DNA of 17,980 nucleotides, taken from assembly GCA_001919995.1 (NCBI GenBank), contig MNIY01000011.1, positions 1 through 17,980 on the forward strand, read 5' to 3'. This document shows positions 1 to 16,949 of this stretch, in pieces. Within the stretch, counting starts at the first letter, position 1. Each line of letters begins with the position of its first letter. The notes below the pieces were generated by a model. That model was given only the letters and a program-made list of their open reading frames with translations, searched no databases and was not told the DNA's origin. Origin of the DNA: Ktedonobacter sp. 13_1_20CM_4_53_11. GTDB taxonomy: Bacteria > Chloroflexota > Ktedonobacteria > Ktedonobacterales > Ktedonobacteraceae. Both the position numbers and the translations under genes were made by a program.

Positions 1-663
1 AACCTGGCTTCCCTCCAGGATCGTATCATCTACCCTGTCGGCGTGTACATGCTCTCCACTCTGTACGCCGGCCAGCTCCTCTAACTCGTCGGCTAAGCGC
101 GCCACTAGGTAACCATAACTACGCTCCTGCAGCAAACGTGAAGTGTTTGATTCTTCACTCATATCGTTATCCCGTAGATATTGGTACACTCCATACAATT
201 GGTGCAGTTCGCTTTCCAACTTTTGCTGCTCATTTGTGCTAAGATAGTCTATGGCTATAGGAAGTGCTCCTTCATCCTGAGATTCTGCTCGCATTGATCC
301 ATAAACAATGTCTGGATCAAAAACGCGCTCGGCTACAAACTCGTAGCCATCATCTGGCAACAAACGACGAAAGTAACAACTGCGATAGCCTGTATGACAT
401 GCCGCATCACCGTGCTGGACAACCTTTATCAAAAGGCTGGTCTCTTCACAGTTTACGAAAATATCCCGTACTTCCTGGACATTACCGGACTGTTCTCCCT
501 TGCGCCAGATAGTATTCCGGGAGCGGCTGAAAAAATGCGTATACCCTGTCTCCCGCGTCAGCGAGAGTGCCTCTTCATTCATAAATGCTACCATGAGCAC
601 CTCTCCCGTAGCATCATCTTGTATCACCGCTGGCAGTAATCCCTGTCGATCGAATTTCAGCAT
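1..663 (-). CDS. hisI: Phosphoribosyl-AMP cyclohydrolase with C-terminal MazG/HisE-like extension, 3' end outside window
   Basis: Opens the ring of phosphoribosyl-AMP in the third step of histidine synthesis (cytosolic). I translated it from the ATG at 663; the frame stays open for 221 codons to the window edge, so the stop is not seen. Residues 1-101 are a HisI domain: SRSRNTIW followed by KGEQSGN at 46-61, and zinc ligands Cys72, Cys89 and Cys96 in NCEE and CHTGYRSC. The usual metal-binding DCDxD reads N-C-E-E-T at 71-75. Residues about 120-221 are an extension with an acidic helix (DELEE, 192-196) and, after about 20 residues, LEGSQ (216-220), resembling the EExxE...ExxD pattern of MazG/HisE pyrophosphohydrolases but not textbook HisE. 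The ATG overlaps the hisF stop by 7 nt, suggesting translational coupling. HisI identity is sure; the role of the extension is inferred. Confidence 0.93.
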
Positions 664-1424
664 GGTCGCACCCACACCCCTCTCGCTTGCAAATAACACT
701 TTACATCATTAATCCGATGCTGGCCAAAATGGAAGATTGATGCAGCTAATAACGCATCTGCACCACCTGTGGTCAAGCCCTCATAGAGATGTTCTAGCTT
801 GCCAACACCTCCCGAGGCTATCACAGGTACCTGGACATTTGTAGAGACCAGCGCTGTGAGTGTCAAATCGTACCCTTTTTGCGTCCCATCTCGATCCATA
901 CTCGTCAGCAGGATTTCTCCGGTACCGAGATCAACACCCCGTTGCGCCCACTCTAACACATCTATCCCGGTAGGGGTACGACCACCATGGATATATACTT
1001 CGTAATTGCTGGGTAGTAAAGGATTGTGACGAGCATCAATGGCGAGCACAATACACTGAGCTCCAAATTGCTCGGATCCGGCACGCAACAGTTCGGGTGA
1101 CACAACCGCAGCTGTGTTAAGCGAAGTTTTATCAGCCCCTGCTCCCAGGGTTGCGCGAATATCCTCGACAGTGCGAATTCCTCCACCAACAGTAACAGGG
1201 ATGAACACCTCCTCCGCTGTTTTGCGTACAACATCAAGCATGGTCGCCCGGTTCTCATAGGTCGCAGTGATATCGAGAAAAACGAGTTCATCCGCACCTT
1301 CTCTGTTATAATACGCTGCAAGTTCCACAGGGTTTCCAGCATCACGCAGATTCTCAAAATGAATCCCTTTGACTACACGGCCTGCTGTCACATCAAGACA
1401 AGGGATAATGCGCTTGGTCAACAT
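657..1424 (-). CDS. hisF: Imidazole glycerol phosphate synthase, cyclase subunit
   Basis: Closes the imidazole ring: with ammonia from HisH it converts PRFAR to imidazole glycerol phosphate and AICAR. The 255-residue protein has the normal length and (beta-alpha)8 half-barrel symmetry. It begins KRIIPCLDV with catalytic Asp11; the second catalytic Asp130 is in LAIDARH. Phosphate-binding loops are TVGGGIRT (78-85) and IASGGVG (202-208). The segment [10 protein letters not shown] (98-107) is a mild variant of the usual DKVSINTAAV. The ATG follows a strong GGAGGAGGTT ribosome site that overlaps the end of hisA; the hisA stop lies 4 nt upstream. It sits with hisH and hisA, its structural paralogue, as in most his operons. 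The C-terminus ends in Pro-Cys because the reading overlaps the hisI start. Nothing is missing. Confidence 0.97.
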
Positions 1425-1428
1425 GTCT

Positions 1429-2193
1429 CTAACCTCCTCCTCTTTCTATCTCCTGAATTGCCGACGCCAGAACTACATCTCCCGTATAGAGCGCCCTGCC
1501 AATAATCGCCCCCTCAACTCCCAATCCGGCGACGGCTTGCAGATCATCTATTGTGCTGATGCCTCCAGAAGCAATCAATGCAGATGTTGGATATGTTGCA
1601 TCAGCAGAGGCCTTAAGAGGTTCGGTAATCACCCTCTGCATCTCTGACAATGCCTCCAGGTTCGGCCCTTTCAAAACCCCATCGCGTGCTATATCAGTAT
1701 AAATAAAACGTCGGACGCCAAGCATGCGCAATTCTCTTGCCAGAGATGTTGCCTGAGTACTGGAGGTCTCGCGCCAGCCCTGCATAGCTACCCGGCCATC
1801 CCGCGCATCCAGGCCAACGGCAATACGTTCCCCCCAACGATGCAGTGCCTCCTCTATGAGTGCACGATCGGTCAATGCTATCGTACCTAGAACAATACGC
1901 TCTATACCAAGGTCAAGCACCTGCTCGATATGTGGAAGCGCTCGCATGCCCCCTCCAACTTCAATCCGCAAGGACGTGGCCGCGCGTATGCGCCCGATGA
2001 GTCCCACATTAACAGGGTATCCGCTGGCTGCTCCATCCAGGTCAACGACATGCAACCAGCTTGCGCCAGCCTCTTGCCATCGTTGTGCGACCCTCACCGG
2101 ATCGGTATCGTAGGTAGTCACCTTGCCATAATCCCCTTGATAGAGGCGCACACAGGCTCCATCTTTGATATCAATCGCCGGTAAAATAATCAT
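1429..2193 (-). CDS. hisA: ProFAR isomerase (HisA)
   Basis: Isomerises ProFAR to PRFAR, the fourth step of histidine synthesis. Counting from the ATG at 2193 the protein has 254 residues, typical for HisA. It starts [12 protein letters not shown], with catalytic Asp8, and has the second catalytic Asp129 in GLDARDG. The barrel phosphate loops are IEVGGGMR (77-84) and IASGGIS (207-213); TDIARDG at 166-172 is the conserved strand-6 motif that distinguishes HisA from HisF. A longer reading from 2337 adds 48 residues with no HisA similarity and buries the start inside hisH, so I reject it. The chosen ATG overlaps the hisH stop by 4 nt (ATGA), typical of coupled translation. A short insertion of about 10 residues rich in Ala/Thr lies before the last strands (about 193-203). 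A dual HisA/TrpF (PriA) role cannot be excluded by eye. Confidence 0.96.
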
Positions 2194-2798
2194 TGGTTCA
2201 CCCACTGCACAAAATTCCTGAGCAATTGCAGACCCGCTTCCCCGCTCTTTTCTGGGTGAAACTGCGTACCCCAGATATGTTCGGCTACAATAACACTGCA
2301 AAAGGAAGAACCATAACCGGTGACCGCCGCTACACATCCATGATCTTGTGGCTCGACGTAATAGGAGTGAGCGAAATAAAAATAGGCATCTCCAGGAAGA
2401 TCGGCAAAGATAGGTAACCCACTGCGCGTCGGCAACACCTGGTTCCAGCCCATATGTGGAATCTTCGGTCCCTCAGGGATACGTCTCACTGCCCCGCGAA
2501 AGAGGCCCAAACCGTCGACCTCCCCCTCAGCGTGATAGTCTGCCAGCAGTTGCATGCCAAGACAAATGCCTAAAAAAGGCTTCCCCTGTTGTGTTGCCAG
2601 GCGAATAGCAACGTCCAATCTTCTCTCTTTCATACGTGCCATCGCAGTCCCACCAGAGCCAACTCCCGGCAACACAATAGCCTGTGCAGCATCAACAACA
2701 GCGGGCTCATCGGTTACCTGCACCTGGGCTCCCACGTATGCAAGGGCTTTCTCGATGCTACGCATATTACCCGCCCCGTAATCGATAACGACTATCAT
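2190..2798 (-). CDS. hisH: Imidazole glycerol phosphate synthase, glutaminase subunit
   Basis: Class I glutamine amidotransferase that hydrolyses glutamine and channels ammonia to HisF. The 202-residue protein is full length. The nucleophile Cys79 is in GICLGMQLL, and the other catalytic residues are His181 and Glu183 in TQFHPEKS. The N-terminal DYGAGN and the LPGVGSGG loop (43-50) are standard for HisH and contribute to the HisF interface and oxyanion region. The ATG follows AAGGATGAGTAG with good spacing; the preceding HAD-kinase gene ends 4 nt upstream, and hisA overlaps the hisH stop by 4 nt. Its place between an unexpected HAD-kinase fusion and hisA keeps the hisH-hisA-hisF order common in bacteria. 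No unusual residues were seen in the active site. Confidence 0.97.
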   Translation of the reverse strand: MIVVIDYGAGNMRSIEKALAYVGAQVQVTDEPAVVDAAQAIVLPGVGSGGTAMARMKERRLDVAIRLATQQGKPFLGICLGMQLLADYHAEGEVDGLGLFRGAVRRIPEGPKIPHMGWNQVLPTRSGLPIFADLPGDAYFYFAHSYYVEPQDHGCVAAVTGYGSSFCSVIVAEHIWGTQFHPEKSGEAGLQLLRNFVQWVNQ

Positions 2799-2802
2799 CT
2801 AC

Positions 2803-5283
2803 TCATCCTTCGTTCAGCGATCTATTGCCCATTTCAATTGCCTGAGCCAGCCCAAGCCAGCAAAGAGCAGGTGGTAGGCGTTTCACATCCAGCAGGTTCA
2901 TCGTTAACAACGGGCAACACATCATTGCTAACCATACCACCTCAGACCAATCTGCCGAAAGGTCATTCTTTGTACCCAGCATTTCCTTGAGTGGTGCATA
3001 GAGGTCGTGTAATTTCGCCTCGAAAATCGCCTTGCGTATCATCGTCAGCTCATAATTATGTTCAACGTAAATGTCTGAACCGCGAATATCAACAGAAATC
3101 TGCAAATCCTGCGCTACCTTCTCTGGAAAATACATCCATGTCGCGAACACGTTATGAAAGAAAGGTTTGACTATGTCGAGGAGCGGGGAATGGCGCCCGG
3201 CAAAGGCCGGGTCAAAATAGAGAAAGTCTTTCCTGTCTTCCAGGAAGACATTGCCAAAATGTGCATCTCCATGTCCAATAACAGTCGCCATTTCTCGCGC
3301 TGGATCGAGCACGATTCTCGCTCGTTCAATCAGTCCGCCAAGGGTCGGTCGCTTCCATTCTCCGGTTACAACTGTTCCATACATATTATAGACCGTCCAA
3401 CGATATTGAAGCAGTTCCTCGAAAGGTATCCCCTGCACATAGCCAGACGGGCCTTGACCAGGCAATGTGACAACTTTTCCTTGATAGAATGATTTAAACC
3501 GCTCACCTGCAAGGCGATGCCAGAAAAGCTGGTGGATAGGAGCGCGAGCGTGTTCCTCCGCCGGGCTTCTCATCATTGTCTGATCATAGATAGACAGCAA
3601 ACGAGCACACTCCCGCTTTTCAGCTGCAATGACCGTTTCAAACGCATCATCTTCAGCGGAACCTGCCTCGATCGCATGCACAAGGTCGAATATAACAGGC
3701 CAGCGCACCACCGGGTAAATTACCATCTGCCGCCCTCCCTCGTGCAGCGCCTTGAGCGGTTTGACAATGTTGTAGCCGGCCTGGTGAAGCAGGTCGGCGT
3801 GATAGTATTCTGCCAGGATGCCCTGCTCTTCGACGTGCGTCTTGAAAAAGTATTCTTCGCCGTTCAGACGATAAAATCCATTGAATGAATTCAATGAAAC
3901 CGCCTTTGGCGTCAAGGTCACACTCTCGGGATATAATTGCATATGCCGGGCGAACCAGCGCCGTAAAAGCCGCTCTGCTTTTTCTTTCTCAGAGAATTGA
4001 AGGCGTTGAATAGCAGCAAGACTATCGATCTCTTCCAATAATTTCGGCAGCCCGGTCATATCTTCAATAGTGAAATCCGGCCTGCTTTGCTCCAAAAGTT
4101 TGCGCGCCTCTGCAGTACGTGCGCCAGTTAGTACAGCCACAGTAATTGCCCCGGCCGCGCGGCCACCCAGTATGTCACTGGTCGAGTCTCCTACCACCAC
4201 AAAGGATTCATTCTTTGCAAGAGATGTTCTTGGTGCACTGGAGTCATCAAGCAATGTTGTTTCAAGACGTTCCATGGATTCAAGCAAGCCATTGAAATTT
4301 TGATCGCTATGATCAGCTGCAACCAGAAATTGAAAAGGGTGCGGCTTACTCAGGAGCGTATGATCGCCGTGTGCACGCAGCACTGCCTCCGCACGCTCGA
4401 TGTCGTCGTACGTCGCGCTATGCTCTTCGTCAAAATAGCGGTGTAACCCATACATCTCTAGAGGATAAAGGGCCTCTTGTTGGGTGCGACCGGTGGCAAA
4501 CCCCAGCAGATAACCTTGACTCTGCAGCGTTTCAAGAGTAAGCTGCACAGCTTCCAAAGGGAGTAGAGGCTGCTCAAAGTGAATACATCCAGGCTTACCT
4601 TGCTGCTTTGAAAGATGGCCATAAGTCGACGCATAGAGACTATCCCCCAGGTACCACTCTTGAAAGATATCCCGGCAAAATGACCAGAAAGGGCTGTAGC
4701 GTGAAAAAACATCCTTTATGGGATAGCCCAGTCGTTCACTGGCGTAGAGGTCAAAGCGATTGATGAGAGCAAGCCCGACACATCCTTCAAAAATGGGCAT
4801 ATCAAAAAGCGAGGCACCATGTTGAGTATCAGTGCTGCCTCTCTCCCCGTATTGATCTGAGCGCCTCACAAAGAGTGGCGATTCTCGCGGAAGTATTAAT
4901 TGTGTACTCTGCTTTCTAAAGGCCGTGAGCCATGCAGCATCCCAGGGTCGTAAGGGCAAGAGAGATTGGAGGTCTGGCACGAATGCCAACAGGTCAATCA
5001 AACTGAGGCAGGCTGCTACATAACAGCTGTCCCAATTGGAGTTGATAGCGCGCGCCTTGATTGCGAGTATCTCCGCTTCTGGAAGAATTGCACGACTGGT
5101 TCTGCGGCTCTCCTCGGCGGTCACCACAGGATGATATTGCCCATCCGCGCCCAAAATGCTAGCATCCAGGTTCCAATAGCGCGGACTATAATAGAGCTCA
5201 TGCAGCGTCAACCCTGCCGCATCCCAGTAGGCTTCTTCGTTGGTAATCACACCGTCCAGGTCAAACACCACCAGGTTCTTCAA
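2803..5283 (-). CDS. HAD phosphatase / APH-type kinase-fold fusion inside the his operon
   Basis: An 826-residue two-domain protein of unknown function. Residues 1-420 are a HAD-superfamily hydrolase: nucleophile Asp8 and acid/base Asp10 in VFDLDGVIT, Thr264 in FATGR, Lys313 in SKPHP, and Asp366/Asp370 in VVGDSTSD. About 250 residues separate motifs I and II, implying a very large cap. Residues about 440-826 look like an aminoglycoside/choline-kinase-type phosphotransferase: probable ATP-contacting Lys481 (EEYFFKT), hinge near MVIYPVV (520-526), catalytic loop HGDAHFGN (671-678; Asp673, Asn678) and metal-binding Asp691 in YFDPAF. All core residues for both activities are present. The start is TTG at 5283 after an AGAGG site and overlaps the hisG stop by 4 nt, so translation is likely coupled. 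Position suggests a link to histidine synthesis, perhaps histidinol-phosphate phosphatase, but this HAD type differs from the HisB phosphatase domain. Fold calls are firm; function is not. Confidence 0.8.
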   Translation of the reverse strand: MKNLVVFDLDGVITNEEAYWDAAGLTLHELYYSPRYWNLDASILGADGQYHPVVTAEESRRTSRAILPEAEILAIKARAINSNWDSCYVAACLSLIDLLAFVPDLQSLLPLRPWDAAWLTAFRKQSTQLILPRESPLFVRRSDQYGERGSTDTQHGASLFDMPIFEGCVGLALINRFDLYASERLGYPIKDVFSRYSPFWSFCRDIFQEWYLGDSLYASTYGHLSKQQGKPGCIHFEQPLLPLEAVQLTLETLQSQGYLLGFATGRTQQEALYPLEMYGLHRYFDEEHSATYDDIERAEAVLRAHGDHTLLSKPHPFQFLVAADHSDQNFNGLLESMERLETTLLDDSSAPRTSLAKNESFVVVGDSTSDILGGRAAGAITVAVLTGARTAEARKLLEQSRPDFTIEDMTGLPKLLEEIDSLAAIQRLQFSEKEKAERLLRRWFARHMQLYPESVTLTPKAVSLNSFNGFYRLNGEEYFFKTHVEEQGILAEYYHADLLHQAGYNIVKPLKALHEGGRQMVIYPVVRWPVIFDLVHAIEAGSAEDDAFETVIAAEKRECARLLSIYDQTMMRSPAEEHARAPIHQLFWHRLAGERFKSFYQGKVVTLPGQGPSGYVQGIPFEELLQYRWTVYNMYGTVVTGEWKRPTLGGLIERARIVLDPAREMATVIGHGDAHFGNVFLEDRKDFLYFDPAFAGRHSPLLDIVKPFFHNVFATWMYFPEKVAQDLQISVDIRGSDIYVEHNYELTMIRKAIFEAKLHDLYAPLKEMLGTKNDLSADWSEVVWLAMMCCPLLTMNLLDVKRLPPALCWLGLAQAIEMGNRSLNEG

Positions 5284-6368
5284 TGTAACCTCTTTAATCG
5301 TTCATGCAAGCTGCGAACGCGCACAGATTCTCTCTCAAAGCGATAAGTCAACGGGGTCACATCGATATGAAATGCCCCCATACTGCGTAGGATAGCGACG
5401 GCCTCCAACAATTCTGAGCTTGTATTGCCAACACGTACCACCCCCGAAATCGTACACCCATTGGGATCCGCTTTTTCGCTTACTGCCAAACCCCTTCCAT
5501 CGGAACTTGCTACACGAAACTCGAAGCCAGGGATACGCGATTTCAATTGTTGGCAAATGCGCTGAATCCCATCAGAGCCTTCGACCTGCAAATGCGCAGT
5601 AAGCAGTGAGCGATTGCGCGCTTGCATGCGAGCGTCAATCAACTCCAACATCATTGAGGCTATGCGCAGGGCCTGTTTGTTATGGTTCAGGAGCTGTGCG
5701 TTACCAATCAAGCAGGCTTGAGAACGCAAAACGATACCGTCATCTAACAATTTCAAGTGGTTTTCACGCAGTGTTGTACCGGTCTCGGTCAGATCAACGA
5801 TCAAGTCAGCTGTATCGGTCAAGGGTGCCGCCTCGAGCGCCCCGTGAGGAGAAACAATCTTACAATGAGTGATGCCATGCCGGCGCAGGAACTGTCCCGT
5901 CAGAATGGGATACTTGGTGGCAATACGCAGCCCCCGCCCTTTTTGCGTGGCATAGTAGCCTGCCAGGTGCCAGAGGTCGGCACAGGTGCTCACATCAATC
6001 CACGTTTCGGGCACCGCTACCACGAGGCGACAGGCACCGTAGTCAAGGTTACGCTCTAAAACGATGATATCTTCTCCGTTATCTCCATCAACAATCTCGT
6101 CATCACTATAACCGAGATGCTCGGCCAGGATATCATAGCCAGTTATACCAAGTGTAGCATCGCCATTGAGCACGAGCATTGGTATATCTGCGGCGCGTTG
6201 AAACACCACTTCCAAGCCCGGCATGCTTGCGATGCGTGCCAGGTACTGGCGCGGGTTGCTCCGGTTGACCTTCATCCCGCATTCGGCGAGAAAGGAGAGC
6301 GTCGAGGCCTCCAAAGTACCTTTACCCGGCAATGCCAGGCGTACTTCTTGCTCCTTCGTCACTGCCAT
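5280..6368 (-). CDS. hisG: ATP phosphoribosyltransferase, long form
   Basis: Catalyses the first committed step of histidine synthesis, joining ATP and PRPP. The 362-residue protein begins VRLALPGKGTLE, has NGDATLGITGYDIL at 68-81 in the periplasmic-binding-protein-like catalytic lobes, and the PRPP loop DLTETGTTLREN at 192-203. Residues about 253-345, ending GAFHIDVTPLTY, resemble the HisG C-terminal regulatory domain that binds histidine, so this is the long, feedback-inhibited form, somewhat longer than the usual 290-300 residues. Long-form HisG normally does not need HisZ, which matters for the neighbour upstream. The ATG at 6368 overlaps the end of the HisRS-family gene by 10 nt; the next gene starts 4 nt inside its stop. 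Identity is clear; the C-terminal domain assignment rests on its position and the terminal motif. Confidence 0.93.
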   Translation of the reverse strand: MAVTKEQEVRLALPGKGTLEASTLSFLAECGMKVNRSNPRQYLARIASMPGLEVVFQRAADIPMLVLNGDATLGITGYDILAEHLGYSDDEIVDGDNGEDIIVLERNLDYGACRLVVAVPETWIDVSTCADLWHLAGYYATQKGRGLRIATKYPILTGQFLRRHGITHCKIVSPHGALEAAPLTDTADLIVDLTETGTTLRENHLKLLDDGIVLRSQACLIGNAQLLNHNKQALRIASMMLELIDARMQARNRSLLTAHLQVEGSDGIQRICQQLKSRIPGFEFRVASSDGRGLAVSEKADPNGCTISGVVRVGNTSSELLEAVAILRSMGAFHIDVTPLTYRFERESVRVRSLHERLKRLH

Positions 6369-7864
6369 TGCTCCTTATGCGCTATATTCTCTGCCAGTGT
6401 ATCTACAGCTAAAACTCTTTCCTCGCCTGTCTGCAGATCCTTCAGAGTTACCCTCTGCGTCCGCTGCTCACTTTCACCCACAATTATTGCCAGGGCAATC
6501 TGCTTCCTCGTCGCTATTTTCAAACCGGCTCCGACACCGTGCCCGCTCACATCCACCTCCGTCCACAAGCCCTGCAATCGCGTGGAGCGAGCCACTTGCA
6601 AGGCATAGGGTACATCACTCTGGCTGACAGGAATTACCAGCGCCCGCGTAGATTCGTTCGACGGCAGGTCACTTCTATCTATAAGCGAAAGGAGACGCTC
6701 GATACCAAAGGCAAAACCGCAGGCGTTGATATCGCGATTGCCACCAACGGCGCGCACGAGGTGATCGTAACGCCCACCTCCACAGAGTTGAGCATCGAAA
6801 CCATCTTCATCGCGAGCATGTATCTCAAAAACCAGCCCGGTATAGTAGCTGACACCACGCCCAAGTGACAGGTTGAGTACAATCTGCTGTTGTGGTACTC
6901 CACACTGCTCTACAACTGCCACAAGCTGCTCTAGTTCAGTCAGCGGCTCGGCATCCAGTTCGTAGCTCGCTAACAGGGCGCGTAGTTCATCAAAGACGAG
7001 AGGAGGAGACCCGGAGAGCGCGTGTAGGGCACGCATAAACTCCAGTGCGTGCAGAATCTGCCGCCGCTGTTCACTACGTCCCACTTTCCACAGGAAGCGT
7101 TCGACAACTTCATCACGAACAGTATCATCTCCGAAGGAGATACTGATGCCGTTGAGTAGAGAGGTCATAAAGCGGGTTTCCACCTCGGATATCCCCGCGG
7201 CAACTATCTCTCTATTACTCCCTTCCACCGTGTTCAGGGGATACAATGCTTCCAGCCGCGCCTGTGCAGCTCGTTCTCCTTCTTCGGAACGGCTGATTTG
7301 TTCCATCAAACTAAGCAACAAACGCGCTGCTTGTTCATCGAGGCGCAGGCGCTGAATAAATCCACTGGCTACACCTATATGCCCCAGCTCCAGGCGGTAT
7401 TGGGTGATGTGAAGTTTTTGCAGCACATCACAGGCAAGCTGCACGATTTCAGCATCGGCGGCGACTGCCTGCCCACCGAACAACTCAACCCCCAATTGCG
7501 TATGCTGTCGATAACGGTTACGCCCAGGTGCCTCATAGCGGAAAATTGGACCGGCATATTGAAAGCGTAAAGGTAAATGCTGCTGTTGGTAGTGATCAAG
7601 GTACAGCCGGCAAATTGAAGCTGTGTACTCTGGTCGCAAACAAAGGTCTCGATGGTGCAGGCGAAAAGCATACAGGTTTTGCCACAGCTCCTGCCCAAAG
7701 CTGGTGAGAAAGAGATCGCTATGCTCTAGCATGGGAGTATCGACCGTAACATACCCCGCTTGAGCCAGGAGCGTACTCAAACTGTCAGTCAACCAGCGTC
7801 GATGCTGATACGCCTCCGGCAATATATCGTGCATCCCGCGCAACCGCTCAACGCGCTTTTTCAT
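6359..7864 (-). CDS. hisS: Histidyl-tRNA synthetase family protein (HisS, or HisZ-like)
   Basis: Class II synthetase fold. From the ATG at 7864 it has 501 residues; an upstream in-frame GTG at 7891 is less likely because an AGAAGG site lies 7 nt before the ATG. In numbering from the GTG: LRPEYT (85-90), motif 2 around GPIFRYEAPGRNRYRQ (114-129), LGRGVSYYTG (343-352) and motif 3 GGGRYDHL plus FGIERLL (371-401). Residues expected to contact histidine are present. A C-terminal domain (about 415-500) resembles the anticodon-binding domain of true HisRS, which HisZ proteins usually lack. SYYTG in place of DYYTG, and an insertion around 215-290 that makes it longer than the usual 420-430 residues, are odd. 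Because the adjacent HisG is the long form, I favour a tRNA-charging enzyme, but a regulatory paralogue is possible. The gene overlaps hisG, and the argB stop lies just upstream. Confidence 0.8.
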   Translation of the reverse strand: MKKRVERLRGMHDILPEAYQHRRWLTDSLSTLLAQAGYVTVDTPMLEHSDLFLTSFGQELWQNLYAFRLHHRDLCLRPEYTASICRLYLDHYQQQHLPLRFQYAGPIFRYEAPGRNRYRQHTQLGVELFGGQAVAADAEIVQLACDVLQKLHITQYRLELGHIGVASGFIQRLRLDEQAARLLLSLMEQISRSEEGERAAQARLEALYPLNTVEGSNREIVAAGISEVETRFMTSLLNGISISFGDDTVRDEVVERFLWKVGRSEQRRQILHALEFMRALHALSGSPPLVFDELRALLASYELDAEPLTELEQLVAVVEQCGVPQQQIVLNLSLGRGVSYYTGLVFEIHARDEDGFDAQLCGGGRYDHLVRAVGGNRDINACGFAFGIERLLSLIDRSDLPSNESTRALVIPVSQSDVPYALQVARSTRLQGLWTEVDVSGHGVGAGLKIATRKQIALAIIVGESEQRTQRVTLKDLQTGEERVLAVDTLAENIAHKEQWQ

Positions 7865-7883
7865 GAACGAAACCTTCTGCTCA

Positions 7884-8759
7884 TTATTCACCCCTTCGTA
7901 TCATTGTACCGGCTCCCTCGTCGGTGAATAATTCGCGCAGCAATATATGGGATTCCCGGCCATCGACAATATGTACACGTGGCACTGCGAGCAAGGCGTC
8001 AAGACAGGCCGAAACTTTTGGGATCATACCGCCACTGATAACGCCATCTTCAATGAGCTTCTTCGCCTCCAGTTCCCCCAGTTCCGAGATCAATGTTCCA
8101 TCTTGGCGACAGATACCCACCACATTGCTCAGGAAGATTAATTTCTCTGCGTTGAGCGCACCCGCTAAATGAGCTGCAACCAGGTCTGCGTTGATATTCA
8201 GGCAAGTATCATCTGGTCCCTGGCCAAGTGGAGCAATAATTGGAATATAGCCCTGGTCGATAAGTGTTTGCACAGGTAGGGGATCAACCGACTCGACCTC
8301 TCCAACAAAACCAAGGCGTTCATTAGCGACACGAGCACGGATCATGTTCCCATCTGTTCCACTTAAACCTACAGCGTGACCACCAAGTGAGGAAGTCATC
8401 AAAACCAGCCCCTGGTTGACCTGTCCCAACAGAACCATACGTACAACATCCAGTGTCGCTGCATCAGTGACGCGCAAACCCTGCTCAAAACGTGCCGGTA
8501 AGTTAAGCTTCTTCAGCCACTCATTAATATATGGACCACCGCCGTGCACCAGTACAGGATTGGCGCCTAACGCACGTAACCAGATGATATCCTGCAAAAC
8601 ACTGCGTTGATATTCAAGGGCGCTGCCCCCTAATTTTACCACCAGCGTCTTCCCTTTCAAAAAATCGATGTAGGGAAGTGCCTCGCGCAGTACCTGTGCA
8701 ATTAAGTGATGATCGTTGATGATGTCGCCTTCTGACGTTATTGAAAATGTAATAGACAT
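7884..8759 (-). CDS. argB: Acetylglutamate kinase
   Basis: Phosphorylates N-acetylglutamate in the second step of arginine synthesis (amino-acid-kinase fold, cytosolic). The 291-residue protein has Lys42 in VVKLGGSA, the substrate loop HGGGP (72-76), LRVTD (95-99), NINADLVA (188-195, phosphate and substrate contacts) and ATP-site Lys248 in GGMIPK. A roughly 35-residue N-terminal extension ending LPYIDFLKGK precedes the first strand; such an N-terminal helix is typical of hexameric, arginine-inhibited enzymes and absent from the insensitive E. coli type, so feedback inhibition by arginine is expected. The ATG follows GAGGAAGG at 8 nt. It lies 83 nt after argC; the next gene begins within or just after its stop, joining the arg pair to the his block. 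Confidence 0.96.
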   Translation of the reverse strand: MSITFSITSEGDIINDHHLIAQVLREALPYIDFLKGKTLVVKLGGSALEYQRSVLQDIIWLRALGANPVLVHGGGPYINEWLKKLNLPARFEQGLRVTDAATLDVVRMVLLGQVNQGLVLMTSSLGGHAVGLSGTDGNMIRARVANERLGFVGEVESVDPLPVQTLIDQGYIPIIAPLGQGPDDTCLNINADLVAAHLAGALNAEKLIFLSNVVGICRQDGTLISELGELEAKKLIEDGVISGGMIPKVSACLDALLAVPRVHIVDGRESHILLRELFTDEGAGTMIRRGE

Positions 8760-8842
8760 TTTAGAAAACCTTCCTCTTCATTTGATAATCGTTACATTGA
8801 ATAAGAACACCCAATCGCCGCTTTTGGATAACACTCGTTTCT

Positions 8843-9940
8843 TTACGGGAAAAGAGACATTGGTGATAACCCATATGTTTCTGTTAGTCCAAAAAGCCTG
8901 TTCGCATTCTGTATTGCCTGGCCTGCTGCACCTTTGACGAGGTTATCCAGGCACGAAATCACCACGAGTCGCCCGGTGCGGCTATCCACCGTTGGATGGA
9001 TAAAGCAGTTATTGCTGCCATAGGACCATTTGGTATGCGGCGGTTGATCTACGACATGTACGAAAGGCTCATCCGCGTAGTAAGCTTCATAAAGCGCCTT
9101 GACATCTGCCGTTGTCGATACATGCCTCTGGTCATCTTGTCGCAAATCAGCATAACAAGTCGCCAGAATGCCGCGTGTCATTGGTATCAGGTGTGGTATA
9201 AACGTGATTCTTAGAGGCCGGCTGAACGCGTTACCTCCCGCCAGTGCAGCCGCGGTAAGTTCCTGGGAAATCTCGGGGAGGTGGCGATGTCCAGAGAGAC
9301 TATAAGCACTCACATCTTCATTCGCCTCAGCATAGTGAGTACCTTGTGTCGGGCTGCGACCGGCGCCGCTTAACCCCGATTTGGCATCGATAATGACGTC
9401 AGGGACAATCATACCCGCAGCCACCACAGGTAGGAGTGCCAGCGTCGCAGCAGTAGCATAACAACCAGGATTCGCTATCAGCGTAGCCGCTTCAATACGC
9501 TCACGGTAACGCTCGCACAATCCATATACCGCTGTCTCCAAAAGAGCTGGTGCGGGATGAGTGTGCTTATACCATTCTTCGTAGACCGCCGCATCGCGCA
9601 AACGAAAATCGGCTGAGAGGTCTACGACCTTTGTACCCCGCTCCAATAATTGTACGACCGACGTTGCAGCCGCGGCATGCGGTAGGCAAACAAAAGCGAG
9701 ATCAGTCTGCTCAGGTTCCTCCGCGATAACAAGTGCTGCATCAAAACCAGTAGAGCTGTGATCGCGTTGCTTTAAGCCTGCATAGCATTGAGGGAAAACA
9801 TCATACAGCCGCTGCCCGGCGGCACTTCGTGCTGTTACGGCCTCCACACTGAAATGTGGATGTTGTGAAAGTAAACGCAGCAATTCTATTCCTGTATAGC
9901 TTGTCACGTTTACGATCGATACGCTGATCTTCATCATCAT
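8843..9940 (-). CDS. argC: N-acetyl-gamma-glutamyl-phosphate reductase
   Basis: NADPH-dependent reduction of acetylglutamyl phosphate to the semialdehyde, third step of arginine synthesis. In numbering from the furthest ATG (9946), catalytic Cys162 is in NPGCYATA, GLSGAGRSPTQGTHYAE (191-207) is the family signature, and HRHLPEI (220-226) carries the conserved histidines. Near the N-terminus the nucleotide loop reads NVTSYTGIELL, with Ser where Gly is common. Four ATGs lie close together (9946, 9940, 9937, 9934). The GAGAAGG site touches 9946 but is 6 nt from 9940, so 9940 is the likeliest start and the others differ by a few residues only. It is the first gene after the T-box leader, so it should be induced when uncharged arginine tRNA accumulates. 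The argB start lies 83 nt downstream. Confidence 0.96.
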   Translation of the reverse strand: MMMKISVSIVNVTSYTGIELLRLLSQHPHFSVEAVTARSAAGQRLYDVFPQCYAGLKQRDHSSTGFDAALVIAEEPEQTDLAFVCLPHAAAATSVVQLLERGTKVVDLSADFRLRDAAVYEEWYKHTHPAPALLETAVYGLCERYRERIEAATLIANPGCYATAATLALLPVVAAGMIVPDVIIDAKSGLSGAGRSPTQGTHYAEANEDVSAYSLSGHRHLPEISQELTAAALAGGNAFSRPLRITFIPHLIPMTRGILATCYADLRQDDQRHVSTTADVKALYEAYYADEPFVHVVDQPPHTKWSYGSNNCFIHPTVDSRTGRLVVISCLDNLVKGAAGQAIQNANRLFGLTETYGLSPMSLFP

Positions 9941-9999
9941 GTTCATCCTTCTCTTGATTTTCTTTGAAAGAAATGAGCGTGATGGAGGAAGCAGGCAAT

Positions 10000-10045
10000 A
10001 AAAATGCCCTCGTCCCCATCAATACAGATCTGAAGGGACGAGAGC
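10000..10045 (-). terminator. T-box-controlled intrinsic terminator
   Basis: On the minus strand GCTCTCGTCCC (10045-10035) pairs with GGGACGAGGGC (10016-10006) over 11 bp with one G-U pair, followed by CATTTTTATT. The 5' arm also forms the 3' side of the T-box antiterminator, so the two structures are mutually exclusive. It also would stop read-through from the upstream lipoprotein gene when arginine tRNA is charged. Confidence 0.92.
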
Positions 10046-10353
10046 CTGGTGTTAGCAATGCTCCCGTGGTACCACCCATCTTGTCACCAAATCAGCTTCA
10101 GCGCAACCCATCTTCCTCACCACGCTGTGACGAAGTGTTTGTGACCACTTTACTGGTTATATCGCTGCATGGGAACCACCCATCTGCTCCTACTTGCCCT
10201 GGTTAGAAGGCTTTCTTCGGTCAGCCGCTCGCGAGGCGGTTCTGAGATGGTACATCTATTCCGAACTTCCACTAGCTATCGGATCGCTGTTAGAGACCTA
10301 CCTCATACTATGTTCGCTCAACGCGGGACAGACTTTCTTATGTAGTTGTTACT
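10000..10353 (-). promoter_or_regulatory. T-box riboswitch, arginine specifier (CGC)
   Basis: Leader RNA upstream of argC that should bind uncharged tRNA-Arg and allow read-through. Stem I is visible. Lower helix parts are GTC and CCGC (10333-10323) with partners GCGG and GAC. A UGA/GA kink-like motif follows. The specifier loop has AGTA (10309-10306) opposite GAAC then CGC (10238-10236), closed above by TGAG/CTCA. The AG bulge AGCGA (10288-10284) lies below an apical stem TCCGA/TCGGA with loop motif AGTGGAAG. The antiterminator starts at 10077: GGG, bulge TGGTACC (10074-10068), ACGGGAG, partner CTCTCGT-CCC ending at 10035. The layout matches B. subtilis glyQS, where GAAA precedes specifier GGC. 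The bulge TGGT pairs with a tRNA ending A-CCA, which fits many arginine tRNAs and argues against histidine (C73). The T-box call is nearly certain; specificity is strongly supported. Confidence 0.93.
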
Positions 10354-11583: not shown

Positions 11584-12543
11584 CTAAGGGAGTAGTGGCA
11601 GTTCTTCGCCAAAGCCCTGCGTTAACGCCTGATTATAAACATGAGCCGCGGCTGCGATATCTTCGAGCGCAATCCCTAGACCCTTATAGAGGGTAATATT
11701 CTCTGCCGCATCACGTTGCGGACCCCGCCTACCGACTACTTCAGACAGATCAAATACTCTATCCCAATTAAATAGATTTTCTTCGGCAGGAATGATGAAA
11801 TCTCCTGCCTCAGTTTGTGCTTGCTCTCGCGAATCGGTAACAATCAAATAACTCCGCTGTAAAGTCGATAAATCAATTTCACGTTTTGTATGCCAGTTTG
11901 AGCCTATAGCATTGATATGACAACCTGGTTTGAGCCATTCTCCCTGGAAGACCGGGTCTGAAGACGAGGTTGCGGTAATCAAGATATCTGCTTCCTTGAC
12001 CACCTGACGAGCGCTGGGTACAGGCCTCACTTCAATATTGAGTACTTTCGCCATCTCGTTACAAAAGATATTACAAGCCTGTGCATCGCGACTGTAGACA
12101 TAAGCTATCGTCACAGGACAAACAGCACATATCCCCATCAGTTGGGTAACAGCCTGATTACCAGAACCAATCAGGCCAACGATGGTGGCATCTGGTCGCG
12201 CTAGGAATTTGGTAGCCAGGCCACTGGTCCCCCCTGTGCGCATTCGTCCTAACCAATCGGCCTCGATAATAGCGAGGAGCTGTCCATCTTGAGCGCTATG
12301 GAGCATCACAACAAAGCGTACCCCTTCCCGAAATGCCGTATACGATTTATACCCCAGCACACCCAGGGTGGGTGCAGCCGCGGACAGCACGTGCAATACG
12401 CCATTTAACAGCCTGATACGTTGACGAGGAAGATTTATTGCATTTTTATCCGCTAGAGCGCCAAATACTTGTTCCAATATGGCTACAGTATCAGGCATAG
12501 ACAAAAGAATACGGACATCTTCCTCACGTAATACTAAAGCCAT
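11584..12543 (-). CDS. Ornithine cyclodeaminase / mu-crystallin family NAD(P)-dependent enzyme
   Basis: Members include ornithine cyclodeaminase (ornithine to proline plus ammonia), alanine dehydrogenase and cyclic ketimine reductases. In this 319-residue protein the substrate lobe carries GYKSYTAF (64-71, with the likely catalytic Lys66) and RMRTGGTSGLATKFLAR (100-116); the Rossmann loop is GLIGSGNQA (123-131); GSNWHTKREID (214-224) and LYKGLGIALEDIAAA (285-299) are family hallmarks. Length is normal. No convincing ribosome site precedes the ATG at 12543. It lies among PLP enzymes and just upstream of a lipoprotein gene. Substrate cannot be told from sequence; because it is far from argC-argB and under a different promoter, I would not assume an ornithine role. 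Confidence 0.88.
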   Translation of the reverse strand: MALVLREEDVRILLSMPDTVAILEQVFGALADKNAINLPRQRIRLLNGVLHVLSAAAPTLGVLGYKSYTAFREGVRFVVMLHSAQDGQLLAIIEADWLGRMRTGGTSGLATKFLARPDATIVGLIGSGNQAVTQLMGICAVCPVTIAYVYSRDAQACNIFCNEMAKVLNIEVRPVPSARQVVKEADILITATSSSDPVFQGEWLKPGCHINAIGSNWHTKREIDLSTLQRSYLIVTDSREQAQTEAGDFIIPAEENLFNWDRVFDLSEVVGRRGPQRDAAENITLYKGLGIALEDIAAAAHVYNQALTQGFGEELPLLP

Positions 12544-12570
12544 AGGAGTTGCTCGATATTCGACTACTGC

Positions 12571-12963
12571 TTACGACTGCTTACGACGGATAATGCGTCG
12601 CATGTAAACCACTGTTTCTTCTATCTCATAGTTCTTAGGTAATTTAAACTGTTTATCGTTTTGCGGAAACAGTACATCTCGTAACCTGTTCAGTGTCGGT
12701 AAAGTATTACTGACTGGCCGTGGTGGTTTTGCAGGCGGCATCACGCGGGCCATCAGGCCACGCCGCACTAACTCGATACCAACTCCAACGGCAACTGCCC
12801 CAACTCCCGCGGCAAAACGCGGCAATTGGGGATTCTGTAATAAAGAAGGAGTACGGTTTTGTATTGTTACCAGGCTTGTTGAGGGTACTGTTAAATCTGC
12901 CCCACAACGACGGCAATACGAGTCACCTTCTTCATTTCCGAAACGACATTTAGGACATAGCAT
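12571..12963 (-). CDS. Small zinc-ribbon protein with a hydrophobic segment
   Basis: From the ATG at 12963, 8 nt after AAGGAGGG, the product has 130 residues. It begins with a four-cysteine zinc ribbon, CPKC followed by CRRC about 14 residues later (CxxC...CxxC), the kind found at the N-terminus of many small bacterial membrane proteins. A glycine/alanine/valine-rich stretch of about 20 residues (near 50-70, FAAGVGAVAVGVGIELV) could be one membrane helix. The rest is basic and proline-rich and ends with RRIIRRKQS. An in-frame ATG 30 nt upstream (12993) has no ribosome site and lies before the cysteines, so I reject it. It sits between the class V PLP protein and the OCD-family gene with short spacers. 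I recognise no family beyond the ribbon. Confidence 0.75.
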   Translation of the reverse strand: MLCPKCRFGNEEGDSYCRRCGADLTVPSTSLVTIQNRTPSLLQNPQLPRFAAGVGAVAVGVGIELVRRGLMARVMPPAKPPRPVSNTLPTLNRLRDVLFPQNDKQFKLPKNYEIEETVVYMRRIIRRKQS

Positions 12964-13003
12964 TCGCGTATCCCTCCTTAAAGAACGCTGCACTGCACTT
13001 TCT

Positions 13004-14065
13004 TTACTTCCTACTCTCTAGTATCTCGGCAATCGCGCCGATGACCAGAGCATTTTCTTCTATGGTATTGTAAAAATATGGCGAAGCCCGCAACAATCCT
13101 GGACGTGAGTCCGTAATGATATTACGCGCGACAAGGGCCTTCACCACTTCTTCAGGTTGTTCAATCTCCAACATTACAATGGAACTGCGTTGTTCTGGCT
13201 CCAGCGGAGCACGCACTTTCCAACCATGTTCACGAGCCTGGGCAATCAGGTCATTGGTCAAATAGCGGGTACGCTCACAAATCTGCTCTACACTAATCTC
13301 CTGTACAATATCAAGTCCGCCATTCGCTGCGTAAATCGCAGCAACAGCAGGCGTTCCCATTTCAACTCTGGTAGCATCTGGACGAAAATCAAACTCCCGT
13401 GTCTTAAACTGGAACTGTTCGCTATGTCCAAACCACCCGGCAATCGTAGGTTGTAACTGGGATATCAATCCTTCACGGATATAAACAAAGGCCAATCCGG
13501 GACCACCCATCAACCATTTCAGTGTACCCGTCACCAGGAAATCAACGTCCATGGCATTGACGTTTATCGGTATCTGGCCAGTCCCCTGGTAATCATCGAC
13601 CAGCATATAGGCACCGTGCTTGTGCGCGATATCGGCGACCGACCGTATATCCTGGATATAGCCACTCGTATAGAATACACGTGAAGTAGCCACTAATGCC
13701 GTTTTATCATCAACCTCGCGCTCAAACAATTCTGGGGGAGTATAAATACGATCAGGACTTTCAACAAAACGACACTCGACGCCTATACGCTGCAATTGCG
13801 CTCCAATAATGGCAGCAAATTTCTGTCTAGCCTTGGCGATCTCCCCCATCCAGATTTCATACCAGGCATGCGCTCCCCACTCGTTCCACATCTCCATGAA
13901 TTGTGCCAGGCGTTGCATCGATCGATTCGAGAGGGCACCCAATGAGCAACTGTTTAGGTACGTCTTCCGCTGCAGGATCGGGAACTCTGAGCGATACGCC
14001 AGTAATTCTGGATGTTCGATGGCGACGGGGGCCGGATATTGCACCCTGGACTCATTCATGGTCAT
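13004..14065 (-). CDS. Class V aminotransferase/kynureninase-like PLP protein, apparently with internal deletion
   Basis: A fold-type I PLP enzyme of the NifS/kynureninase branch, 353 residues. Visible: N-terminal TYLNSCSLGALS (35-46), cofactor Asp in MLVDDYQGTGQ (154-164), Schiff-base Lys183 in GTLKWLMGGPG, and a C-terminal small domain ending LRASPYFYNT (325-334). Between FAAIIGA (83-89) and RIGVECRFVES (93-103) the chain jumps directly from the early helix to the strand that normally follows the first part of the large domain. About 50 residues that usually hold the PLP-phosphate loop and a substrate-side helix seem absent, at about 13796-13801, while the frame is kept. It may therefore be inactive or repurposed. 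The ATG follows AAGGAG at 10 nt. It lies 85 nt after the cysteine desulfurase gene. Fold is certain; the deletion is judged from family knowledge, not alignment. Confidence 0.85.
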   Translation of the reverse strand: MTMNESRVQYPAPVAIEHPELLAYRSEFPILQRKTYLNSCSLGALSNRSMQRLAQFMEMWNEWGAHAWYEIWMGEIAKARQKFAAIIGAQLQRIGVECRFVESPDRIYTPPELFEREVDDKTALVATSRVFYTSGYIQDIRSVADIAHKHGAYMLVDDYQGTGQIPINVNAMDVDFLVTGTLKWLMGGPGLAFVYIREGLISQLQPTIAGWFGHSEQFQFKTREFDFRPDATRVEMGTPAVAAIYAANGGLDIVQEISVEQICERTRYLTNDLIAQAREHGWKVRAPLEPEQRSSIVMLEIEQPEEVVKALVARNIITDSRPGLLRASPYFYNTIEENALVIGAIAEILESRK

Positions 14066-14150
14066 CGTGTATCTACTCCTTCAAGGAAATATCGACCGAT
14101 TATTTGCCCTATACCGGTGTTCACCATTCTTTGAGACTCTGTTCTCTATT

Positions 14151-15320
14151 TTACCGCTTATTATGCAGAGTTGCTATAGTTCTTACCAGCAAAGTTGCCG
14201 CTTGCTCCACTTCTTCCTCGCTTGACCAGCGCCCAAGGGTCAAACGTAGCGCCCCAAGCGCTGTTTCGCGAGATAGCCCCATAGCCAACAACACCGGTGA
14301 GGGATCGGTATTGCCCTCGTGACAGGCGGAACCAGTAGAACTGGCTACCCCTGGAGTGGCAGCGAGTACCTCTTCCCCTATAACACGATCAATACTGATG
14401 TTGAGTGTATTGGGCAATCGCTCGCTGGCATGCCCATTAAGATGGACAAACCCGGGAAGAGAAGTTTCGAGTCGTCGTTGCAGCCGATCTCGCAATCGTC
14501 GCAGGCGTTCCTGGCTCTCTTCAAGCTGCTCCCGGGCCACCATACAGGCTACGCCTAACGCTACGATATACGCGATATTCTCTGTACCAGCTCTCCGCCC
14601 AGCTTCCTGCCCCCCGCCGTAAATGACCGGTTCAAGCTGCAAGCCCTGCCGCACGTAAAGCGCGCCAACACCTTTTGGAGCATATACTTTATGTCCAGCA
14701 ACGGTCAGCAGATCAACAGGGAGCTCATCCAATCGGGTCGGAATTTTGCCCACCGATTGCGCTGCATCGCTATGCATGAGCACATCGTGACGGCGAGCAA
14801 GCTCCGCAATCTCGGCAATTGGTTGTAGCGTACCGGTCTCGTTATTGGCATGCATGATCGTAATCAAGACGGTTTGCTCGTCAATCGCCGCTTCAACATC
14901 CGCTGGACTGACCCGTCCTGTCGCGTCGACAGGCACATAGGTAATACGAAATCCGTGCAAACGCTCCAGTGCACGACACGTATTGAGCACAGCCGGATGC
15001 TCTGTTATCTGCGTAATGATATGATTGCCACTGGCCCGCCTGGCAAGCGCGACACCGCGAATGGCAAGATTATCGCTTTCGGAACCACCAGCTGTAAAAA
15101 TTATCTCGCTGGGCAAACAATGCAGCAACCCTGCTACCTGTTGCCGTGCGTTGTCAACGGCCCGATGAGCTATATGTCCATAGCCATGTGTACTTGAAGG
15201 GTTGCCAAAGTACGTTGAGAGATAGGGAAGCATGGCCTCAACTACCACCGGGTCAACTGGCGTGGTAGCGTTGTAATCAAGGTAGACAGGCCCATCTTGC
15301 AAGCCTGGATGTGTTTTCAA
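14151..15320 (-). CDS. Cysteine desulfurase, NifS/IscS type
   Basis: Removes sulfur from cysteine as a persulfide for iron-sulfur clusters, thiolated tRNA or thio-cofactors. The 389-residue protein begins YLDYNATTPVDP (13-24), has FGNPSSTHGYG (38-48), His108 in TEHPA, NNETGTLQPI (159-168), Asp185 and Gln188 in HSDAAQSVGK, PLP Lys211 in AGHKVYAPKG, RRAGTENI (242-249) and the persulfide Cys333 in SSTGSACHEG. All catalytic residues are present, and the long active-site loop indicates group I (IscS/NifS) rather than SufS. The start is TTG at 15320, supported by GAGGAGGT 5 nt upstream; no better ATG lies nearby. No iscU, thiI or mnmA is adjacent; its neighbours are other PLP enzymes, so it may be a housekeeping gene in a loose operon or supply sulfur to a local pathway. 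Symbol left blank because nifS and iscS cannot be told apart here. Confidence 0.93.
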   Translation of the reverse strand: MKTHPGLQDGPVYLDYNATTPVDPVVVEAMLPYLSTYFGNPSSTHGYGHIAHRAVDNARQQVAGLLHCLPSEIIFTAGGSESDNLAIRGVALARRASGNHIITQITEHPAVLNTCRALERLHGFRITYVPVDATGRVSPADVEAAIDEQTVLITIMHANNETGTLQPIAEIAELARRHDVLMHSDAAQSVGKIPTRLDELPVDLLTVAGHKVYAPKGVGALYVRQGLQLEPVIYGGGQEAGRRAGTENIAYIVALGVACMVAREQLEESQERLRRLRDRLQRRLETSLPGFVHLNGHASERLPNTLNISIDRVIGEEVLAATPGVASSTGSACHEGNTDPSPVLLAMGLSRETALGALRLTLGRWSSEEEVEQAATLLVRTIATLHNKR

Positions 15321-15379
15321 ACGATACCTCCTCGTGGCTCAGTTGGTTTTCTCATTACTCGCTTCTAACTTCTACAGTT

Positions 15380-16876: not shown

Positions 16877-16904
16877 AGTAAGTAACCTCTCGACTAAAGA
16901 ATAA

Positions 16905-16949
16905 GCCCCCATCGGAATGGGGGCAGAGCACCTCCATGAGGATGGAGGT
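16905..16949 (-). terminator. Tandem hairpins, likely terminator after the glutaredoxin-like gene
   Basis: Two perfect 8-bp stem-loops stand 5 nt apart. Read on the minus strand the first is ACCTCCAT/ATGGAGGT with a 4-nt loop (16949-16930), and the second is GCCCCCAT/ATGGGGGC with loop TCCG (16924-16905), followed by TTATTCTTT. The second fits an intrinsic terminator that ends the glutaredoxin transcript. On the plus strand the first hairpin is followed by ATTATATTCTCTTT, so the pair could also stop opposing transcription. It overlaps the furthest possible start of the decarboxylase gene, which supports the 16876 start. Confidence 0.75.

What the first reader, a model, noticed from the sequence alone, without database searches (positions are those of the whole stretch)
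2803..5283. HAD phosphatase fused to a kinase-fold domain inserted between hisG and hisH
Seen: a single 826-residue chain with all four HAD motifs and, C-terminal to them, HGDAHFGN and FDPAF of an APH/choline-kinase fold; TTG start overlapping hisG and only 4 nt before hisH. Known: HAD enzymes supply histidinol-phosphatase activity in many bacteria, but the HisB type has a different motif I and no kinase. Inference: a phosphatase plus kinase in one chain could act on the same metabolite in opposite directions, or the HAD half could fill the histidinol-phosphatase step missing here while the kinase half modifies another substrate. The roughly 250-residue cap is also unusual.
Basis: partly seen in the sequence, partly recalled or inferred. 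Interest (0 to 1): 0.8.

Follow-up and report, generated by a model that had tools for sequence, protein, structure and literature searches.

The report
Kinase-phosphatase fusion replacing histidine enzyme HisB
A two-part enzyme (a phosphatase joined to a kinase) sits in the histidine operon of a bacterial family in which no copy of the dehydratase HisB could be found, and its kinase half also lies beside histidine genes in other bacteria where HisB was not found either, which hints at an undescribed route to this amino acid.

Summary
An 826-aa ORF (minus strand, 2803-5283, TTG start) overlaps hisG by 4 nt, lies 4 nt before hisH, and joins a HAD phosphatase to an APH-fold kinase; the catalytic residues of both halves are invariant in 18 relatives. 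It is no local oddity: it is in 27 of 29 genomes of its family and next to hisH in 25 of those 27. The dehydratase domain of HisB (IGPD, PF00475) is found in 0 of 29. An unfused version of the kinase is in 17 of 396 genomes of another Chloroflexota class, beside hisD in 16 of 17, and IGPD is found in 0 of 17; in two of them an unfused HAD follows the kinase. Kinase-bearing lineages share a HisD clade with three changed active-site residues, and HisC is above cut-off in 0 of the 17. Best reading: the kinase replaces IGPD (phosphorylate a hydroxyl, lose phosphate) and the HAD supplies a phosphatase step in a rebuilt lower half of histidine synthesis. Shown: fold, motifs, context, mutual exclusion. 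Inferred: substrates, order of steps, histidine as product. The large cap is ordinary (1QYI type). No biochemistry exists for any of this.

The parts
2803..5283 (-). HAD-kinase fusion gene, 826 aa, TTG start
4003..5283 (-). HAD phosphatase half with large helical cap (residues 1-427), 1QYI type
2806..4002 (-). APH-fold kinase half (from residue 428)
5280..6368 (-). hisG, overlapping the fusion start by 4 nt
   Evidence: TIGR00070 181 bits
6359..7891 (-). hisZ-like (HisS/HisZ family) gene
   Evidence: TIGR00443 and TIGR00442 both over cut-off
2190..2798 (-). hisH
   Evidence: TIGR01855 221.8 bits
1429..2193 (-). hisA (listed ORF runs to 2337; start at 2193 inferred from the profile match)
   Evidence: TIGR00007 252 bits from residue 51 of the listed ORF
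657..1424 (-). hisF
   Evidence: TIGR00735 373.7 bits
1..699 (-). hisI/hisIE, cut by the window edge
   Evidence: PF01502, NF000768 over cut-off
7884..8759 (-). argB, upstream neighbour kept in many relatives
   Evidence: TIGR00761 246.5 bits
8843..9946 (-). argC, upstream neighbour kept in many relatives
   Evidence: TIGR01850 387.7 bits

Best explanation
The gene encodes two catalytic parts of a lower histidine pathway that has no HisB dehydratase. The upper pathway, encoded in the same operon (HisG, HisZ, HisIE, HisA, HisH, HisF), makes imidazole-glycerol phosphate (IGP). The C-terminal APH-fold kinase takes the place of IGPD: it phosphorylates a side-chain hydroxyl of IGP, or of a compound made from it, so that phosphate rather than water leaves; elimination beside the imidazole ring gives the enol/ketone that IGPD would have made. 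The N-terminal HAD half is the phosphatase of the branch and removes the original 3-phosphate, before or after that step. Shown here: folds, intact motifs, operon membership, mutual exclusion with IGPD, association with a variant HisD. Inferred: the substrates, the elimination, the order of steps, and that histidine is the product.
Against: No biochemistry. No lyase domain is seen, so the elimination is unassigned. A full-length HAD of this type was found in only 2 of the 17 unfused-kinase genomes (only the 4 best candidates per genome were scored). HisC is over cut-off in 14 of 16 fusion-bearing family genomes tested, as a canonical route would also have. TIGR01656 is over cut-off in 13 of 27 fusion-bearing genomes. 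IGPD was also not found in 27 kinase-free genomes (22 of 34, 5 of 18); of the 22, only G059 has hisH over cut-off. G007 and G012 lack fusion and hisH yet keep the variant HisD. The genomes are related, and the variant HisD clade may have one origin, so the counts are not independent. Histidine prototrophy of these bacteria was not established.
Confidence: 0.5

Rival explanations
1. The upper his genes are kept to make IGP for a product other than histidine, while histidine is taken up. HAD, kinase and the variant HisD convert IGP to an unknown imidazole compound.
For: IGPD not found in 29 of 29 family genomes; HisC not over cut-off in 17 of 17 unfused-kinase genomes; HisD active site changed. 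Families f2 and f4 of the same order mostly lack hisH, HisD and IGPD altogether, so histidine auxotrophy is plausible nearby.
Against: Conservation of the whole block with hisZ and the arg genes in 25 of 27 genomes looks like primary metabolism; HisD keeps its catalytic Glu-His pair and two zinc-ligand His.
Confidence: 0.2
2. The HAD half is an ordinary histidinol phosphatase and the kinase half acts on an unrelated substrate or only regulates; IGPD is replaced by something not recognised here.
For: HADs serve as HolPase in known pathways; the HolPase step is often unfilled (HisN low-confidence in 42 of 148 organisms, PMC7311316, passages); the HAD motifs are intact.
Against: The kinase, not the HAD, is the constant partner of IGPD absence and of hisD in the second lineage.
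Confidence: 0.17
3. The two halves run in opposite directions on one metabolite, as a regulatory or repair cycle.
For: Two intact active sites of opposite type in one chain.
Against: In 15 of 17 unfused-kinase genomes no full-length HAD of this type was found; it does not explain IGPD absence.
Confidence: 0.06

Closest known systems
Bifunctional HisB of E. coli (HAD histidinol phosphatase + IGPD; architecture recalled)
   Same: A HAD phosphatase at the N-terminus joined to a second catalytic domain, in the his operon.
   Different: The second domain is an APH-fold kinase, not IGPD (no PF00475 hit); the HAD half is 1QYI type and has no TIGR01656 hit at E<=0.001.
S. aureus Q8NW41 (PDB 1QYI), HAD of unknown function
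   Same: Same HAD core and large cap; sequence E 4.6e-32, Foldseek E 3.9e-20, TM 0.74 by target length.
   Different: Stand-alone 384 aa chain without kinase; its genomic context was not examined.
LxmK of the lexapeptide dehydratase LxmKY
   Different: About 11% identity; peptide substrate; its partner is a HopA1-like lyase, here a HAD phosphatase or none.
5-methylthioribose kinase and PsiK
   Different: About 10% identity; no sequence match of the family profile to any PDB chain at E<=1; own invariant motifs such as SLNS, EYY, GHGDAH (G245 near-invariant) and CCP.

Membership tests
HAD superfamily phosphatases | Four HAD motifs (DxD, T/S, K, GDxxxD) | tested here: met
   Invariant in 19 aligned fusions; PF13242, PF13419, PF00702 over cut-off
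HisB-type / HAD histidinol phosphatase (TIGR01656) | Match to the family model | tested here: not met
   Not among NCBIfam hits at E<=0.001 for the fusion
HisB-type / HAD histidinol phosphatase (TIGR01656) | Histidinol-phosphate phosphatase activity | not testable with these tools
   Needs an assay
IGPD (PF00475) | IGPD domain in the fusion | tested here: not met
   No PF00475 hit at E<=0.001 for the fusion
APH / choline-kinase-like kinases | Kinase fold with Lys, Glu, HxDxxxxN and Asp motifs | tested here: met
APH / choline-kinase-like kinases | PF01636 above the curated cut-off | tested here: inconclusive
   Window member 16.3 bits against 23.2; 27 of 40 relatives match at E<=0.01
LxmKY-type kinase-lyase dehydratase | Kinase paired with a phospho-lyase | tested here: not met
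   The fusion's other domain is a HAD; no other Pfam family in the chain. Works-like is not excluded
Canonical HisD (partner enzyme in kinase-bearing genomes) | Gln/Asp zinc-ligand and His substrate-site residues (E. coli 259, 360, 367; numbering and roles recalled) | tested here: not met
   Glu/Asn/Ala in all informative kinase+ rows

The most novel reading that the evidence does not exclude
A distinct lower histidine pathway that avoids imidazole-acetol phosphate, HisC and histidinol: the HAD (or another phosphatase) turns IGP into imidazole-glycerol; the variant HisD oxidises its terminal alcohol to imidazolyl-glycerate with two NAD+; the kinase phosphorylates a side-chain hydroxyl whose elimination gives imidazole-pyruvate; a general aminotransferase makes histidine. 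This would explain together the absence of IGPD, the absence of HisC over cut-off in 17 of 17 unfused-kinase genomes and in fusion-bearing G005 and G022, and the rebuilt HisD active site, whose substrate would lack the amino group.
Probability: 0.25. Interest if true: 0.95.

Novelty: new variant of a known kind. Interest (0 to 1): 0.8.

Why it matters
IGPD is, as far as I recall, the one dehydratase of every described histidine pathway and a herbicide target. If a kinase replaces it across whole lineages, the second half of a textbook pathway has an undescribed alternative. Predicted histidine auxotrophies in these Chloroflexota would become prototrophies, and there are concrete genes to test. 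Kinase-driven dehydration, known from peptide antibiotics, would then also act in core amino-acid synthesis.

Tried and rejected
Rejected: chance ORF or frameshift join (one open frame in 25 of 27 family genomes; invariant motifs). Rejected: the cap as a novelty (1QYI cap). Rejected: a recent local insertion (same position in 25 of 27 relatives). Considered and not adopted: the HAD as the IGPD substitute, because only 2 of 17 unfused-kinase genomes have a full-length one. Considered: kinase acting on IGP itself, followed by canonical HisC and HisD. It stays open as one version of the best explanation, but fits badly with the absence of HisC over cut-off in the 17 and with the HisD changes.

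Literature: the searches listed no paper that I recognised, from titles and starts of abstracts, as describing an IGPD-free histidine route or this fusion. The library holds open-licence PMC papers only. I opened passages of two papers, PMC12141560 and PMC7311316, and read no paper whole.

Limits of the counts: HisD residues were read in 21 of 28 HisD-bearing family genomes (19 kinase-bearing plus G007 and G012; G015 gave two rows) and in 16 of 17 unfused-kinase genomes (G629 not seen); L173 is truncated at the last two residues; of 12 comparison rows one (L058) is an uninformative fragment, and the rest are 9 IGPD-bearing genomes, G059, and a second HisD of G037. For the tree duplicates were dropped before the count, and five rows (L107, L108, L119, L170, L182) were mislabelled by a regular expression; by the residue table they are variant HisDs, and with that the variant rows are the one 100/100 clade. 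In one search I tested 18 of the 20 kinase-free genomes of that class printed (which printed 20 of 379). In the profile searches only up to 4 first-look candidates per genome were scored. The control genome of B. subtilis did not ring for IGPD or HisD, which I cannot explain.

Full report
What is there. The nearest held genome is G001 (48% of sampled 31-letter words). A near-identical locus lies in a record titled Chloroflexi bacterium isolate CF_110, and several database relatives are named Ktedonobacteraceae, so I call G001's family f1 Ktedonobacteraceae. On the minus strand the order is argC, argB, a hisZ-like gene, hisG, the 826-aa fusion, hisH, hisA, hisF, hisIE. The fusion's TTG start overlaps the hisG stop and its stop lies 4 nt before hisH.

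Distribution and context. Of 61 genomes searched with the whole protein, the fusion is in 27 of 29 of the family, in 0 of 18 genomes of other families of the order, and in 0 of 14 further genomes of the phylum apart from two short weak HAD matches in G048. In the 27, hisH follows the kinase in 25, hisG precedes the HAD in 20 and argB in 6; G013 is cut by contig ends, and G005 and G017 have hisG beside the fusion but no hisH there.

IGPD (PF00475) is matched in 12 of 61 genomes and in 0 of the 29 of the family; 13 of 14 controls ring. hisH is over cut-off in 38 of 61: 26 of these have the fusion and none of the 26 has IGPD; of the other 12, 11 have IGPD (G059 is the exception). In the sister-family genomes G031 and G037, hisD (in G037 fused to an aminotransferase), IGPD and hisH lie together, so the fusion stands where hisD and hisB precede hisH in those. 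For the phosphatase step, TIGR01856 and TIGR02067 have no over-cut-off hit in the family, though TIGR02067 was over its cut-off in only 2 of 14 controls. TIGR01656 is over cut-off in 14 of 29 family genomes, 13 of them with the fusion; I take these for heptose-phosphatase-type HADs, which is an untested guess.

The kinase without the HAD. A profile of the kinase half matched 28 of 400 Chloroflexota genomes: the 27 of the family and the distant G259. There the unfused kinase follows hisD and faces hisG-hisZ. In the class of G259 it is in 17 of 396 genomes. hisD is directly adjacent in 16 of 17 (not G629) and hisG in 13 of 17. IGPD is matched in 0 of these 17, which are 93-98% complete, and in 13 of 18 kinase-free genomes of the class that I tested, one of the 13 being a sub-cut-off fragment. 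In G489 and G667 the order is hisD, kinase, HAD, then convergent hisG and hisZ, so the two halves of the window's fusion occur as neighbouring separate genes. The HAD profile matched 20 of 396 genomes: these two at E 1e-108, and 18 others at 2e-32 or weaker, none of them kinase-bearing.

HisD and HisC. HisD is matched in 28 of 29 family genomes (not G001, 76% complete), away from the his block, with neighbours that look by eye like nuo genes and recO (no search made). All variant HisDs read, 21 family genomes and 16 unfused-kinase genomes, carry Glu, Asn and Ala where 9 of 9 IGPD-bearing genomes read have Gln (once Asn), Asp and His; the catalytic Glu-His pair is kept. By sequence they are still nearer to solved HisDs (313 bits) than to the sulfopropanediol-type paralogues (244 bits or less). 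HisC (TIGR01141) is over cut-off in 14 of 16 fusion-bearing family genomes tested, in 0 of 17 unfused-kinase genomes (G259 249 bits, cut-off 276.55; the other 16 at E 1e-31 to 1e-38), and in 20 of 21 IGPD-bearing genomes tested. G007, without fusion or hisH, also has it. Fusion-bearing G022 (one contig) and G005 (99% complete) do not.

Interpretation. Three lines point at the kinase as the replacement for IGPD: adjacency to his genes in two different arrangements, mutual exclusion with IGPD in 44 of 44 kinase-bearing genomes (27 + 17), and the company of a changed HisD. Kinship reduces the weight of the numbers: Fisher p 7.6e-9 for 0 of 44 against 25 of 52 is uncorrected, and the shared HisD clade suggests that the module may have arisen once. 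Chemically, phosphorylating a hydroxyl beside the imidazole would turn a poor leaving group into a good one. An APH-like kinase does this for Ser/Thr dehydration in LxmKY (PMC12141560, passages). The HAD fits as the phosphatase of the branch, a step often unfilled by known enzymes (PMC7311316, passages). Whether the kinase acts on IGP itself or on a dephosphorylated, oxidised derivative is open. The HisC and HisD data lean to the latter, which is the novel case.

Limits. Function is inferred from genomes only, and the window's own assembly is not held. IGPD was also not found in 27 kinase-free genomes; in the 22 of these only G059 has hisH over cut-off, and for the 5 hisH was not sought. G007 and G012 keep the variant HisD without fusion or hisH; in G012 a hisI gene lies beside it. 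The elimination step has no assigned domain. The upper pathway in the unfused-kinase genomes rests on hisG and hisZ only.

Noticed in passing
window 6359-7891 (-): The hisZ-like gene is over the cut-offs of both HisS (TIGR00442, 310.9 against 286.75) and HisZ (TIGR00443, 273.8 against 271.65) and keeps an HGTP anticodon-binding domain, so it resembles a whole histidyl-tRNA synthetase.
   Followed up: no
window 5280-6368 (-): HisG is 362 aa although a hisZ-like gene is present; the Pfam HisG match covers residues 58-238 only, leaving a long C-terminal part without a Pfam name.
   Followed up: no
window 11584-16912 (-): An ornithine-cyclodeaminase-like gene, two class V aminotransferases and a PLP decarboxylase upstream of argC; of the family loci compared, only G003 (L022) shows the first three in the same place.
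   Followed up: partly
L038 (G027), about 7972-10295: In this genome the fusion lies in separate frames and the database has separate HAD (419 aa) and kinase (337 aa) entries named Dictyobacter kobayashii on a contig of the same length: a natural split or a frameshift.
   Followed up: no
protein clusters P0203 and P0316: An unfused HAD and an unfused kinase whose longest contig is 68001 bases in both cases, so perhaps neighbours in a further lineage.
   Followed up: no
genomes G030-G047 (families f2, f4 of the same order): 16 of these 18 genomes have no IGPD and no HisD match and no hisH over cut-off, as if the histidine pathway were lost; G031 and G037 keep it.
   Followed up: no
genome G059: hisH and a canonical-type HisD but neither IGPD nor the kinase was found: a possible further gap or an assembly gap.
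   Followed up: no
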